From assembly GCF_019056395.1 (NCBI RefSeq), contig NZ_CP077639.1:2110001-2174000 (forward strand): a stretch of DNA of 64,000 bases. The letters are read 5' to 3'. The notes under the pieces were generated by a model. The model searched no databases and was not told where the DNA came from. It saw nothing but the letters and a program-made list of their open reading frames with translations. Position numbers and translations under genes: made by a program. Source of the stretch: Terribacillus sp. DMT04. Its GTDB lineage: Bacteria > Bacillota > Bacilli > Bacillales > Amphibacillaceae. This document shows positions 21,436 to 62,397 of the stretch, one piece after another (the first letter of the stretch is position 1; each line of letters begins with the position of its first letter).

Positions 21436-23250
21436 ATGTTTAAACATTATACCATGTGTGAAGTCGTTTTACCTCTAGATTTGGAAAGAAAATTACCTGA
21501 AAATGATATTGCTTTTACCGTTAACCATTTAGTAGAAAGTATTCCAGATGAAGCTTTTGACGGTTTCCGTCGGGAAACCGGACACCCTGCTTATCACCCT
21601 CGCATGATGATGAAGATTATTTTATGTGCCTATACGCAATCCGTTTTCTCGGGCCGTAAGATTGAGTCATTACTTCAAGACAGCGTACGCATGATGTGGC
21701 TTGCCCAAGATTATCAGCCCAGCTATCGCACCATCAACCGATTCCGTGTGAACCCTCACGTAAAAGAACTCTTACGCCAGTGCTTTGTCCAATTTCGCAG
21801 CCAGCTGGTTCAAGAAAAAGTCATTGAAGAAGAAGCCATTTTTATTGATGGCACCAAAATCGAAGCAAATGCCAACAAGTTTACTTTTGTATGGCGGAAG
21901 TCCACTGAGAAATACAGTACGCAATTGGTGGAAAGATCGGCTCAGATGTATGAAGAACTGTTGGAGCAGGAAATTATCCCCGCAATCGAGCTGGAGAACC
22001 CCGAAGCCCTATCGGGCGAAGAGTTAACAAAAGTAGCAGAAAAACTGGACGAAAAAGTGCAGGAATACGATCGTCGCATAGAAGCAAGTGATGATACTGC
22101 CGAACGCAAGCAGCTTCGTTCCGAACGTAAAGCACCAAAACAGTACCGAAAGCAAGTCAATGATTTCATTAAACGGAAATCAAAATATCAGGTCGACATG
22201 GAAATCTTCGGAGACAGAAATAGCTACTCCAAAACTGACCATGGTGCCACTTTTATGCGCATGAAAGATGATTATATGAAAAATGGCCAGCTTAAACCTG
22301 GGTACAATGTGCAGCTGGCTACTGAAGGTCAATATGCCCTGGCCTATGATGTGTTCCCGAATCCTACGGATACGCGAACTTTTATCCCTTTCCTTGATAA
22401 GATTGAACGGGACTTTTTTGAGCTGCCCGACTATATTGTCGCGGATGCCGGATATGGCAGTGAGCAAAATTATGATGATGTGGTAAATAATCGGAAGCGC
22501 ATCCCTCTCATCACCTATAATCACTACCGAAAAGAAAAGCAAAAGAAATATAAACAAGATCCTTACCAAGTAGCTCACTGGGATTACGATGCCGAAGGCG
22601 ACTTTTTCACTTGCCCGAATAACCGGAAATTAGCGTTTCGGTACCTATCCGAAAGATGCGACAAATTTGGATTCAAGCGTCATTATCGCGTGTATGAATG
22701 TGACGATTGTACTGCTTGTCCCTTACGTGCAGAATGTACGAAAGCGAAAGAAGGAAACAACCGGAAAATCTATTACAACGAAAGATGGGAAAAACAAAAA
22801 GCATATACCCAGCAATTACTCAGCGAAAAAGAAACAGGGAAAATTTACGGGAAACGTAAAATAGATGTCGAGCCAGTCTTCGGATTTCTGAAGGCTCATT
22901 TGTGTTTCACTCGTTTCTCGGTACGAAGTAAAGAGAAAGTGGAAAACGAATTAGGATTCGCCTTCATGGCGGTGAACATCAGGAAGTTCACCGCCAGATC
23001 AGCAAGTATAGTAAGGAATTCAAAAAATATCAGATCAAAAAAGATCTCGGTCACCATTTTCCTGGTGACCGAGATCTTTTTTGTGTCAGAGAGGAGTTAT
23101 GTCCCGCTCTCTTCCTTTTCAATTAGCGTCCCAAGAGGGATTCGAACCCCCGACCCACAGCTTAGAAGGCTGTTGCTCTATCCAGCTGAGCTATTGGGAC
23201 ATGGAGCGGGTGAAGGGAATCGAACCCTCGACATCAGCTTGGAAGGCTGA
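21436..23250 (+). CDS. IS1182-family transposase (open through the right end)
   Basis: A DDE transposase of about 550 residues encoded by the IS. The N-terminal domain begins MFKHYTMCEVVLPLDLE, and the acidic catalytic residues are likely the Asp in FIDGTKIEANANKF, the Asp in YIVADAGYG and the Glu in DVEPVFGFLKAH. A cysteine cluster (CDDCTACPLRAEC) lies late in the protein. AGAGGAGGGTCC precedes the ATG. No stop codon occurs inside the IS: the frame passes through the terminal hairpin and right inverted repeat (SYVPLSS), then runs antisense through both tRNA genes to a TGA at 23248-23250. The tail after about residue 560 is flank-encoded and has no meaning. The core looks intact and possibly active. 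Confidence 0.88.
   Translation: MFKHYTMCEVVLPLDLERKLPENDIAFTVNHLVESIPDEAFDGFRRETGHPAYHPRMMMKIILCAYTQSVFSGRKIESLLQDSVRMMWLAQDYQPSYRTINRFRVNPHVKELLRQCFVQFRSQLVQEKVIEEEAIFIDGTKIEANANKFTFVWRKSTEKYSTQLVERSAQMYEELLEQEIIPAIELENPEALSGEELTKVAEKLDEKVQEYDRRIEASDDTAERKQLRSERKAPKQYRKQVNDFIKRKSKYQVDMEIFGDRNSYSKTDHGATFMRMKDDYMKNGQLKPGYNVQLATEGQYALAYDVFPNPTDTRTFIPFLDKIERDFFELPDYIVADAGYGSEQNYDDVVNNRKRIPLITYNHYRKEKQKKYKQDPYQVAHWDYDAEGDFFTCPNNRKLAFRYLSERCDKFGFKRHYRVYECDDCTACPLRAECTKAKEGNNRKIYYNERWEKQKAYTQQLLSEKETGKIYGKRKIDVEPVFGFLKAHLCFTRFSVRSKEKVENELGFAFMAVNIRKFTARSASIVRNSKNIRSKKISVTIFLVTEIFFVSERSYVPLSSFSISVPRGIRTPDPQLRRLLLYPAELLGHGAGEGNRTLDISLEG
23043..23076 (+). terminator. Terminator at the right end of the IS
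   Basis: GATCTCGGTCACC pairs perfectly with GGTGACCGAGATC, flanked by six A and six T, so it can act on both strands. It should end the transposase transcript and, from the other side, the tRNA transcript. Confidence 0.9.
23127..23200 (-). tRNA. tRNA-Arg (anticodon TCT)
   Basis: Cloverleaf: acceptor stem GTCCCAA/TTGGGAC, D-arm with AGCTCAGCTGGATAGAGC, anticodon loop CTTCTAA giving anticodon TCT, and T-arm GGGGGTTCGAATCCCTC. The CCA end is not encoded (CTA follows the discriminator G). It follows tRNA-Gly by one base and is probably cotranscribed. The IS1182 end lies 12 bp downstream. Confidence 0.95.
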
Positions 23251-23275
23251 GGTTTTACCACTAAACTACACCCGC
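23202..23275 (-). tRNA. tRNA-Gly (anticodon TCC)
   Basis: Acceptor stem GCGGGTG/CACCCGC, D-arm with GTAGTTTAGTGGTAAAAC, anticodon loop CTTCCAA giving anticodon TCC, and T-arm GAGGGTTCGATTCCCTT. The 3' CCA is encoded. First gene of a two-tRNA unit with a strong promoter upstream. Confidence 0.96.
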
Positions 23276-60366: not shown

Positions 60367-60408
60367 ATTTGAGAATTCCTCCTCACAAACTTGCATTAAA
60401 AAAGAAAG

Positions 60409-60790
60409 AAACTCAGACAAAACAAGATTAATTCATCCTAAAAAGCGAACGATTACTAGATCCATACTTTTTCATGCAGCCCTCTGACAGCTGCTGTCTT
60501 TAGCTGTTTCGTCGGACAATAATGGCTTTTACAGTAAACACCGACAAGAAAATAGCTACTAATTTTCGAGGAGTCTACGTCTTCTACCTTCTCCACGAGT
60601 GAAGACTTCTCATAACAAAAATCAGCGTAGGAAATACACGGAGACTCACCAGCCGCCCACAGGAAAGCGGAGTGTATTTCCGAAGCGGTGCTCTCACCTT
60701 AATTTCCAATGCAAAAAATCCAAACAACGCTGCTGTAATTGCAGTATTGTTTGGATTTTTTAAATAGCTTAAACAGTTTTGTCTCAGCCT
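60409..60790. repeat. Dispersed structured repeat, copy 2
   Basis: This is the second copy of the repeat at 13841-14258, in the same orientation and similar along its length, but without the 56-bp GC-rich block of copy 1. Both ends are present: ACTCAGACAAAAC at 60411-60423 and the complement of GCTGAGACAAAAC at 60777-60789 (11 of 13 match). These ends resemble the IS1182 ends (ACTGGGACAAAAC). A terminator-like hairpin (AATCCAAACAA with TTGTTTGGATT, then TTTTT) lies near the right end. No real gene inside. Confidence 0.88.
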
Positions 60791-60919
60791 TATCTTCCTA
60801 CGTTTAGTCAAGTACTTATTCATAGCTTTTTAATATAGGTTATAGCCTTTTTTGGGTATAGGAAATAAACCTCGTTGTATTTATTTTTAAAACGAGGGAG
60901 AATTCGTGATACAATGAAG

Positions 60920-62137
60920 TTAGTGGTCCATAGAGACCGTGTACGAGTAATCGTACAATGTATTATTCTTGATCATGGAATAAATACATTTGAGAAGCTT
61001 GTTCATGCAAGCTACGGTGGCAACCTTATCCTTCTTGGGTACAGGTTGCTTTTTTAGTTTGTAATAATAGTCGACAATGTGATTGGGAGCTGCTTTTTGT
61101 TGGCGGATCATGTTTCGGACAATGAAGTATAATATTTTTCTTCCCTTAGGGTTTCCTCGTTTATTAATGTGATCTTGGCCATGATACTTTCCAGATTGAT
61201 ATCTTCGGATATCAATTCCTACAAAAGCGTTGACTTTCTTATGATCTGGGAAGCGAGACAAGTCACCAAATTCACCGATAAAAAGCGCTGCGCTAATTTC
61301 TCCAATTCCTGGAAGGCTGGTTAGTAACTCGAACTCAGGCAGTTTTTTTGAACCATCAATCATTTGATTAGAAATTTTCTCTTTTTCCTCTAATAGTTGA
61401 AGTAGCTGGAGCGCATAGTACTGCACTTTTTGGGTTTGAATACTATCTGGAGATACTGCAGGATAGGATTCTTTGGCATAATCTATTATTTGAACAGCCT
61501 TTTGTTTTGCACGATTTTCGGAAATTTTCTTAGTGGTACTTCTAATCAATAGATTTTTTATCTTGGTCTGGCTCGATTTCAAAACAAGCACAGGATGAGG
61601 GAACAAACTGATAAGTGTTAAGGCATAAGGTGTAATCCTGCTTGAGAAGAATTGTTCCAGCTCCGGAAAACTTAATTGAAGGGCATGGTGCAGATACATA
61701 CGCATACGCTTTATCTCACCCTCTATTTCTTGATAGAAACGCGCAAAATCACGGAGTCGATGATAAAGGTCGGGCTGTTGAACTTTTTCTTCCCTGGAGT
61801 GCAGGTGGTGAGCTTGCGCTAATTTATGCGCATCATTTTTGTCTGTTTTCCAGCTTCGGAGAGTAGCCATTTCGAGCTGTTTTTTAGCCGCAAGGGGATT
61901 CAACAGACAATAACGTAACTGATTCTTTTGACAGAAGGTTTCCACTGGTTTCGAATAAATGCCGGTGGATTCAAACACAAGAACCGGGTCACCAGGGAGA
62001 TTCCGGATTTCCTCAAGTAAGGTGTTAAAGCCTGTCTGCGTGTGTCTTAGTTCCCCTTCAGCTAAACAGATTTCACCCTGATAAATGACTTTATAGCTTT
62101 TCCCCATTGATACATCTAAAGCAATTACATACTCCAA
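60920..62137 (-). CDS. IS110-family transposase (DEDD recombinase)
   Basis: A 405-residue recombinase. The N-terminal RuvC-like DEDD domain has the first Asp in IALDVSMGKSY (Asp8), the Glu in VFESTGIYSK (about 54) and the Asp pair in SWKTDKNDAHKLAQAH (about 98 and 101). The middle is helical, and the C-terminal Transposase_20 domain has LLTSLPGIGEISAALFIGEF then the Ser-containing RYQSGKYHG (about residue 320) and GNPKGRKILYFIVRNM. The start is TTG at 62137, seven bases after AGGAG. All expected catalytic residues are present, so it may be active. Confidence 0.93.
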   Translation of the reverse strand: MEYVIALDVSMGKSYKVIYQGEICLAEGELRHTQTGFNTLLEEIRNLPGDPVLVFESTGIYSKPVETFCQKNQLRYCLLNPLAAKKQLEMATLRSWKTDKNDAHKLAQAHHLHSREEKVQQPDLYHRLRDFARFYQEIEGEIKRMRMYLHHALQLSFPELEQFFSSRITPYALTLISLFPHPVLVLKSSQTKIKNLLIRSTTKKISENRAKQKAVQIIDYAKESYPAVSPDSIQTQKVQYYALQLLQLLEEKEKISNQMIDGSKKLPEFELLTSLPGIGEISAALFIGEFGDLSRFPDHKKVNAFVGIDIRRYQSGKYHGQDHINKRGNPKGRKILYFIVRNMIRQQKAAPNHIVDYYYKLKKQPVPKKDKVATVACMNKLLKCIYSMIKNNTLYDYSYTVSMDH

Positions 62138-62167
62138 TTTATATCTCCTCTCACGTGTTTTGAAAGG

Positions 62168-62306
62168 TCTTCACTTTTTCATTTCGATTCCAATTTCCTA
62201 TACACGAGCTCCATTGGCCCCAACATACTTAAATCTGATTCAGAAATGAAAGTGAAGAAGCTCGGTTTTAAATTCGGATTCAAGATCCCAGAGGCTGATC
62301 GAGCTT
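62168..62306 (-). ncRNA. Candidate bridge RNA of the IS110 element
   Basis: The non-coding region upstream of the transposase can be folded by eye into two adjacent domains (RNA on the minus strand). Domain 1 (62306 to 62258): AAGCTCG pairs with CGAGCTT and an inner GGAT/ATCC hairpin caps it, leaving an internal loop with sides of ~11 and ~12 nt. Domain 2 (62258 to 62168): a 16-bp stem TCTTCACTTTCATTTC/GAAATGAAAAAGTGAAGA (2-nt bulge), capped by TTGG/CCAA, with sides of ~19 and ~28 nt. The longer side of domain 2 has GTATAGGAAAT, identical to 60856-60866 near the other end. This two-loop plan matches the target-binding and donor-binding loops of IS110 bridge RNAs. No expression evidence. Confidence 0.55.
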
Positions 62307-62342
62307 TCTTTCACCTCTCACTATACTCCTAAAAAGAAAAAT

Positions 62343-62378
62343 AGTGGGCAAAGTCATCCGTCGATGACCTTACCCACT
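62343..62378 (-). terminator. pheT terminator
   Basis: A 16-bp stem with two wobble pairs (AGTGGGCAAAGTCATC with GATGACCTTACCCACT, plus-strand reading) around a 4-nt loop, with two T-runs on the minus strand, 20 bp past the pheT stop. It isolates the IS110 element from pheT transcription. Confidence 0.92.
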
Positions 62379-62397
62379 AATCTTAGTATGTTTTATA

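What the first reader, a model, noticed from the sequence alone, without database searches (positions are those of the whole stretch)
62168..62306. Possible bridge RNA upstream of an IS110 transposase
Seen directly: two adjacent stem/internal-loop domains in the non-coding region before the recombinase, and an 11-nt identity (GTATAGGAAAT) between the longer loop side of domain 2 (62193-62203, minus strand) and 60856-60866 near the other end. Known: IS110 recombinases use a bridge RNA with a 5' target-binding and a 3' donor-binding loop. The order, size and location here fit. Inference: domain 1 binds target, domain 2 binds donor. This would be a bridge RNA not yet described for this element. 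I could not fix the guide-target geometry.
Basis: partly seen in the sequence, partly recalled or inferred. Interest (0 to 1): 0.78.

Follow-up and report, generated by a model that had tools for sequence, protein, structure and literature searches.

The report
Bridge RNA with reversed guide order
A jumping gene in this bacterium carries a small folded RNA that appears to guide it to its insertion sites, like the recently found bridge RNAs, but with its guide segments in the opposite order from the studied elements that keep their RNA in the same place.

Summary
The two stem/internal-loop domains are real and very probably form the bridge RNA of an IS110-family insertion sequence (60795-62392, minus; four copies in this genome). 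In 47 aligned relatives 93.5% of structure cells pair and 20 of 23 pairs change on both sides. Domain 1 matches the target: its 5' side is complementary to the right flank (33 distinct guides, mean 7.6 of 9 against 5.6 re-paired, 0/5000; held-out set also 0/5000). Domain 2 matches both element tips and changes with them. One congener shows the site without the element. Unexpected: the RNA is upstream of the recombinase gene, as in IS621 and ISEc21, but both loops have the reversed guide order that was reported for IS1111 elements. A conserved left-end hairpin looks able to stop read-through from outside but not transcripts from the circle-junction promoter (inferred). No expression or activity data. 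New variant of a known kind.

The parts
60795..62392 (-). whole IS110-family element, left end at 62392, right end at 60795, core AA at each end (62391-62392 and 60795-60796)
   Evidence: ends from comparison of four own-genome copies and the site without the element in a congener
60920..62137 (-). recombinase gene, 405 aa, TTG start
   Evidence: PF01548 and PF02371; NF033542 above its cut-off; residues D8, E56, D99, D102 and the RRYQSG motif at 311
62385..62392 (-). left tip AACATACT, paired by the 5' side of domain 2
   Evidence: covariation
62380..62385 (-). TAAGAT, -10-like hexamer of the circle-junction promoter
62331..62379 (-). left-end hairpin (62342-62379) and U-tract: terminator-like, possibly only for read-through from outside
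62252..62314 (-). [quoted passage not shown]
62290..62297 (-). [quoted passage not shown]
62276..62289 (-). apical hairpin of domain 1
62265..62274 (-). target guide, 3' side (AATTTAAAAC): same sense as the A-rich left flank (weak evidence)
62180..62248 (-). [quoted passage not shown]
62222..62230 (-). donor guide, 5' side (AAGTATGTT): complementary to the left tip
62206..62221 (-). apical hairpin of domain 2
62194..62202 (-). donor guide, 3' side (TATAGGAAA): same sense as the right tip
60863..60897 (-). weak hairpin and T-rich tail after the recombinase gene, possible terminator
   Evidence: -8.1 kcal/mol
60806..60811 (-). TTGACT, -35-like hexamer of the circle-junction promoter
60795..60802 (-). 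right tip CGTAGGAA, paired by the 3' side of domain 2
60776..60794 (-). right target flank GATAAGGCTGAGACAAAAC, end of a dispersed repeat

Best explanation
62180-62314 (minus) encodes the bridge RNA of an IS110-family element. On excision the right and left ends join around core AA and make a sigma-70-like promoter (TTGACT-16 nt-TAAGAT) that would transcribe the RNA and then the recombinase (inferred). [quoted passage not shown] Strand exchange at AA then inserts the circle (inferred from IS621). Each pairing uses the same strand and side as in IS621, but the order along the RNA is reversed in both loops; in other words the RNA-recombinase cassette is turned round relative to the element ends.
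For: Structure: 20 of 23 pairs with double changes, 0/500 shuffles. Target: 33 distinct guides, 7.61 of 9 against 5.64 re-paired, 0/5000; sense and left-flank controls at the permuted level; the RNA-wide scan peaks just before the hairpin of domain 1. Held-out: 20 new pairs 6.95 against 5.42, 11 new guides 6.55 against 5.01, both 0/5000. Donor: left tips AACATACT, AACAATCT, AACAACCT and right tips GTAGGA, GTAAGA each go with a matching loop. One of the nine substitutions in copy L004 lies in the guide and fits its own flank. Site without element in a congener. IS621 run the same way gives the opposite order.
Against: No RNA or activity data. The window copy's own guide matches its flank in only 7 of 9, and the distance from core to motif varies by a few bases. 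Left-flank match is weak (6.35 against 6.01 of 8, 1/5000). Elements are related, so changes are not all independent. The single-sequence fold is weak. The IS621 control did not recover the left-end guide, and its top right-flank hit fell outside the target loop. In the second clade right-flank best matches fall in the expected place in 4 of 7 and right-tip matches in 2 of 7.
Confidence: 0.93

Rival explanations
1. The conserved structure is a cis-acting leader that controls the recombinase mRNA; the matches to flanks and tips are by-products.
For: It lies directly upstream of the gene and a conserved terminator-like hairpin precedes it.
Against: A leader would not need to change with each element's insertion site and tips.
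Confidence: 0.04
2. It is a bridge RNA, but the reversed order is an error of end or side assignment; the guide order is really that of IS621.
For: Ends in most relatives were located with motifs taken from the window copy, and the left flank is too A-rich to be a strong test.
Against: Own-genome copies fix both ends without motifs; the congener site agrees; the right-flank signal is antisense and sits on the 5' side of loop 1, and the left-tip signal is antisense and sits on the 5' side of loop 2.
Confidence: 0.03
3. The recombinase protein alone picks the GAGGCTGGGACAAAA-like motif, and RNA likeness is secondary.
For: The motif is shared by most sites in relatives.
Against: Close relatives sit at quite different sites that fit their own guides, such as L075, L083, L130, L131 and L136.
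Confidence: 0.02

Closest known systems
IS621 bridge RNA (IS110 group; PMC11208160, PMC11208158)
   Same: RNA in the left end upstream of the recombinase gene, two loops, first for target and second for donor, two guides per loop, promoter across the circle junction, same strand and side for each pairing
   Different: order of the two guides reversed in both loops; core AA, not CT; recombinase 405 aa (IS621 328 residues in the PDB chain); the hairpin before the loops is followed by a U-tract
ISEc21 seekRNA (IS110 type; PMC11187229)
   Same: RNA upstream of the gene; [quoted passage not shown]
   Different: in ISEc21 the top-strand match is 3' of the bottom-strand match; here it is 5'
IS1111-type seekRNAs (ISEc11, ISPa11, ISKpn4, ISPst6; PMC11187229)
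   Same: order of target guides (top-strand match 5' of bottom-strand match)
   Different: their RNA is downstream of the gene; they have subterminal inverted repeats of 7-17 bp and recombinases of 330-350 aa according to the papers; here upstream RNA, longest end-to-end inverted repeat 5 bp, 405 aa
ISSep2 (named IS110-like element of staphylococci)
   Same: about 42% identical recombinase, the same tips, the same two loops and guide order as read by eye
   Different: another guide and site; the listing of papers with this name (abstract starts only) showed none on its RNA

Membership tests
IS110 family | DEDD (RuvC-like) domain and C-terminal domain with conserved serine | tested here: met
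   PF01548 and PF02371, NF033542 187 bits against cut-off 140, D8/E56/D99/D102 and RRYQSG
IS110 family | structured RNA in the left end with a target loop and a donor loop | tested here: met
IS110 family | promoter formed by joining the ends | tested here: inconclusive
   hexamers at 16-nt spacing in 44 of 44 elements, but the hexamers were part of the motifs used to find the ends; no transcript data
IS110 family | RNA is expressed, binds the recombinase and directs recombination | not testable with these tools
   needs bench work
IS621/ISEc21-type bridge RNA | 5' guide pairs with the bottom strand, 3' guide with the top strand | tested here: not met
   order reversed in both loops; IS621 control
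IS1111 group | RNA in the right end, downstream of the gene | tested here: not met
   RNA upstream of the gene in all 47 aligned elements, which were chosen by that region
IS1111 group | subterminal inverted repeats of 7-17 bp | tested here: not met
   longest exact inverted repeat between the outer 45 nt of the two ends is 5 bp (window copy only)
IS1111 group | top-strand guide 5' of bottom-strand guide | tested here: met
   the IS1111 side is taken from PMC11187229, no IS1111 element was analysed here
Rfam families | match at the curated score | tested here: not met
   none in the element; three sub-threshold hits near 60700-60832 only

The most novel reading that the evidence does not exclude
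This clade of Bacilli elements is a third bridge-RNA architecture: the RNA is upstream as in IS110, both loops have IS1111-type polarity (the cassette is inverted relative to the recombination sites), and a left-end hairpin overlapping the presumed start site makes expression depend on the excised circle, because only read-through from outside can complete the terminator.
Probability: 0.5. Interest if true: 0.65.

Novelty: new variant of a known kind. Interest (0 to 1): 0.55.

Why it matters
It separates two traits that the published work describes together, the place of the RNA and the order of its guides, and so bears on how IS110 and IS1111 elements diverged. It gives a natural series of guide and target pairs from Gram-positive bacteria, several of them perfect over 9 nt, with an AA core, as starting material for programmable recombinases. 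The conditional-terminator idea is a simple and testable account of how such elements could stay quiet while integrated.

Tried and rejected
Donor pairing through the 11-nt identity at 60856-60866: rejected. The hairpin at 62342-62379 as a pheT terminator outside the element: rejected, it is shared by all four copies, though it may still end pheT transcripts. Single-sequence folding as evidence: too weak. Guide order in more distant IS110 clades (Peribacillus plasmid, 28% identity; Agrobacterium plasmid, 26%): guides not resolved, left open, so I cannot say where in the family the order changed. Kozakia, ISEc32 and one Klebsiella element were fetched and support no conclusion. No IS1111 element was analysed; no tree was built; no protein structure was predicted; no covariance model was built. 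The phage collection has no match to the RNA region.

Literature: searches listed no paper that, from titles, abstract starts and the passages I read, describes this clade's RNA, an upstream RNA with reversed order, or this target motif as an IS110 site. The library holds no bioRxiv preprints and few subscription papers, and figures cannot be seen; Extended Data Fig. 10 of PMC11208160 could show such a case. Seen of each paper: PMC11208160 outline, sections 6 and 12, and passages; PMC11187229 outline, part 1 of 4 of section 5, sections 12, 13 and 14, and passages; PMC11208158 passages only; all others listings only.

Full report
What is there. The finding lies in an insertion sequence of the IS110 family on the minus strand. 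The recombinase (62137-60920, 405 aa) matches PF01548 and PF02371 and NCBIfam 'IS110 family RNA-guided transposase' above its cut-off; its best matches among solved structures are IS621 and ISCro4. The own genome holds four full copies at 99-100% identity and two right-end fragments. Comparison of the four copies shows identity from 257 nt upstream of the start codon to 1342 nt downstream of it; with the tips found in relatives the element is 60795-62392, with AA at each end. In one (L168) of the nine other genomes of the genus, pheT is followed, without an element, by TTAATATAAAAAGATAAAGATAAGGCTG; the window has TTAATATAA-AA on the left and AA-GATAAGGCTG on the right. The two agree but for 7 bp (one A and one GATAAA unit) in the congener. 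The other eight genomes have no such motif there.

The RNA. Upstream regions of 47 elements (recombinase identity 35-100%) were aligned, and RNAalifold finds 17 pairs covering domain 1 and the apical hairpin of domain 2. I added the outer stem of domain 2 by hand after looking at the alignment. With it 93.5% of 1054 cells pair, 20 of 23 pairs have changes on both sides, no shuffle of 500 reaches any of the five measures, and slides by one column give 37-48%. The added stem is the weaker part (86.6% and 74.5% of cells paired). The single window sequence alone would not have convinced.

Target guides. Of the 47 elements 44 had a usable right end; L050, L085 and L103 did not. For L047 I replaced the automatic right end by a later one that had the usual flank. 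The 12 nt before the apical hairpin of domain 1 were compared, as reverse complement, with the right flank. After removal of duplicates (42 pairs) the mean is 7.55 of 9 against 5.79 when re-paired; with one element per distinct guide (33) 7.61 against 5.64; 0 of 5000 permutations reach either. Sense against right flank, and antisense and sense against left flank, are at the permuted level. A scan of every 9-mer of the RNA peaks at alignment column 63, just before the hairpin. Examples: L075 CAACGTTAT with ATAACGTTG; L136 GGACGCTT with AAGCGTCC; L133 and L126, and L135 and L132, show matching changes in guide and flank. Weak cases exist: L056, L060, L063, L071, L072, L086, L088, L100, L107 and L108 reach only 6 of 9. 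Copy L004 of the own genome differs from the window copy at nine places within the element; one lies in the guide and fits its own flank.

Held-out set. Of 45 new loci 6 were dropped (no left end, no right end or truncated gene), 15 repeated another held-out pair and 4 repeated a pair seen before. The 20 new pairs average 6.95 against 5.42 and the 11 new guides 6.55 against 5.01, both 0/5000, with sense controls at the off-diagonal level. Two of the 20 are flawed and lower the mean: L224 has 6 nt of flank, and L235 looks like the element of L047 with its wrong internal right end.

Left flank. It is A-rich. The 3' side of domain 1 resembles it in the same sense slightly more than chance (6.35 against 6.01 of 8, 1/5000, 46 elements); L048 is among the best cases. 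This guide is the least certain.

Donor guides. The left tip has three forms among the 47: AACATACT 31, AACAATCT 11, AACAACCT 5. The 5' side of domain 2 is its complement over 8 nt in 30 of 31 of the first form, and over 5-7 of 8 in the others. In the held-out set L215 has AACAGACT with a loop to fit, while L212 has a mismatch. The right tip has GTAGGA in 32 and GTAAGA in 11 of 44, and the 3' side of domain 2 has AGGAAA and AAGAAA respectively in each; the remaining element, L131, has a mismatch. These forms follow clades, so the number of independent changes is small.

Reversed order. [quoted passage not shown] PMC11187229 reports the same order for ISEc21 and the reverse for the IS1111 elements tested, whose RNA is downstream of the gene. 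IS621 scanned by me gave left-flank sense on the 5' side of loop 1, right-flank antisense at its 3' side and right-tip sense on the 5' side of loop 2; but the top right-flank hit was elsewhere and the known discontinuous left-tip pairing was not recovered, so this control rests partly on the papers. In the present clade the four relations come in the other order. ISSep2 agrees as read by eye. In a second clade at 36-38% identity the left-tip relation is in place in 7 of 7, left flank in 5 of 7, right flank in 4 of 7 and right tip in 2 of 7: in favour, but mixed. The RNP may be just like that of IS621, since turning target and donor round gives the same pairing; what differs is the direction of RNA and gene between the ends.

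Expression. Joined ends give TTGACT-16 nt-TAAGAT or TAACAT in 44 of 44 elements; the hexamers were part of the motifs used to find the ends, so this is not an independent count. In 43 of 43 distinct left ends a hairpin begins 0-4 nt after the -10 hexamer and is followed by at least 5 T in 8. In the window copy the full hairpin has -27.9 kcal/mol and abuts the U-tract; a transcript starting 7 nt after the -10 would keep -14.9 kcal/mol and leave 6 unpaired bases before the U-tract. That gap is 3 nt or more in 42 of 43. I infer that read-through from outside is stopped while circle-driven transcripts pass. The start site is assumed, not mapped. The passages of the two papers that I searched for 'terminator' mention a junction promoter but no such hairpin.

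Target. In most close relatives the right flank begins (A)AGAGGCTGGGACAAAA or near it. The own genome has 62 sites with at most one mismatch to GRCTGRGACAAAA, against 12 for the control pattern. The window copy and L003 sit at the end of a dispersed repeat of about 390 bp (88 matching places in the genome, several per copy); L002 and L004 sit at other sequences with a similar start. The distance from core to motif varies by a few bases even within one genome (L054 and L057, L058 and L061), which I cannot explain.

Verdict. A bridge RNA: very likely. Its way of working looks ordinary, its polarity does not. The claims that would raise the interest, reversed polarity with an upstream RNA and a circle-gated terminator, rest on sequence alone.

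Noticed in passing
window 60405-60796: About 390-bp dispersed non-coding repeat with inverted ends next to the element; 88 matching places in the genome.
   Followed up: partly
L005 1440-1730; L006 1505-1595: Two right-end fragments of related elements in the own genome, L005 beside a GGCTGGGACAAAA motif.
   Followed up: partly
L240, L243, L245, L247-L254: Eleven copies in one genome of the same family all sit at the same sequence (CCGTGCCCGCGGA / AGCGAGTGTATTTCACC or nearly so), which looks like another dispersed repeat.
   Followed up: partly
L089-L093, L095, L106: A second clade (36-38% identity) is flanked by GGCTCTTTGTCAAA-like sequence on the left and CTGTTGTTGATGAA-like sequence on the right, which I recall as ISL3-type ends (not tested).
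   Followed up: partly
L150 and copies L154-L158: IS110 element (28% identity) in several copies on a Peribacillus plasmid, with another RNA layout that I could not resolve.
   Followed up: partly
window 62331-62379: Terminator-like hairpin of the element lies just behind pheT and could end or replace the termination of that gene.
   Followed up: no
window 23127-23275: Two adjacent tRNA genes on the minus strand.
   Followed up: no
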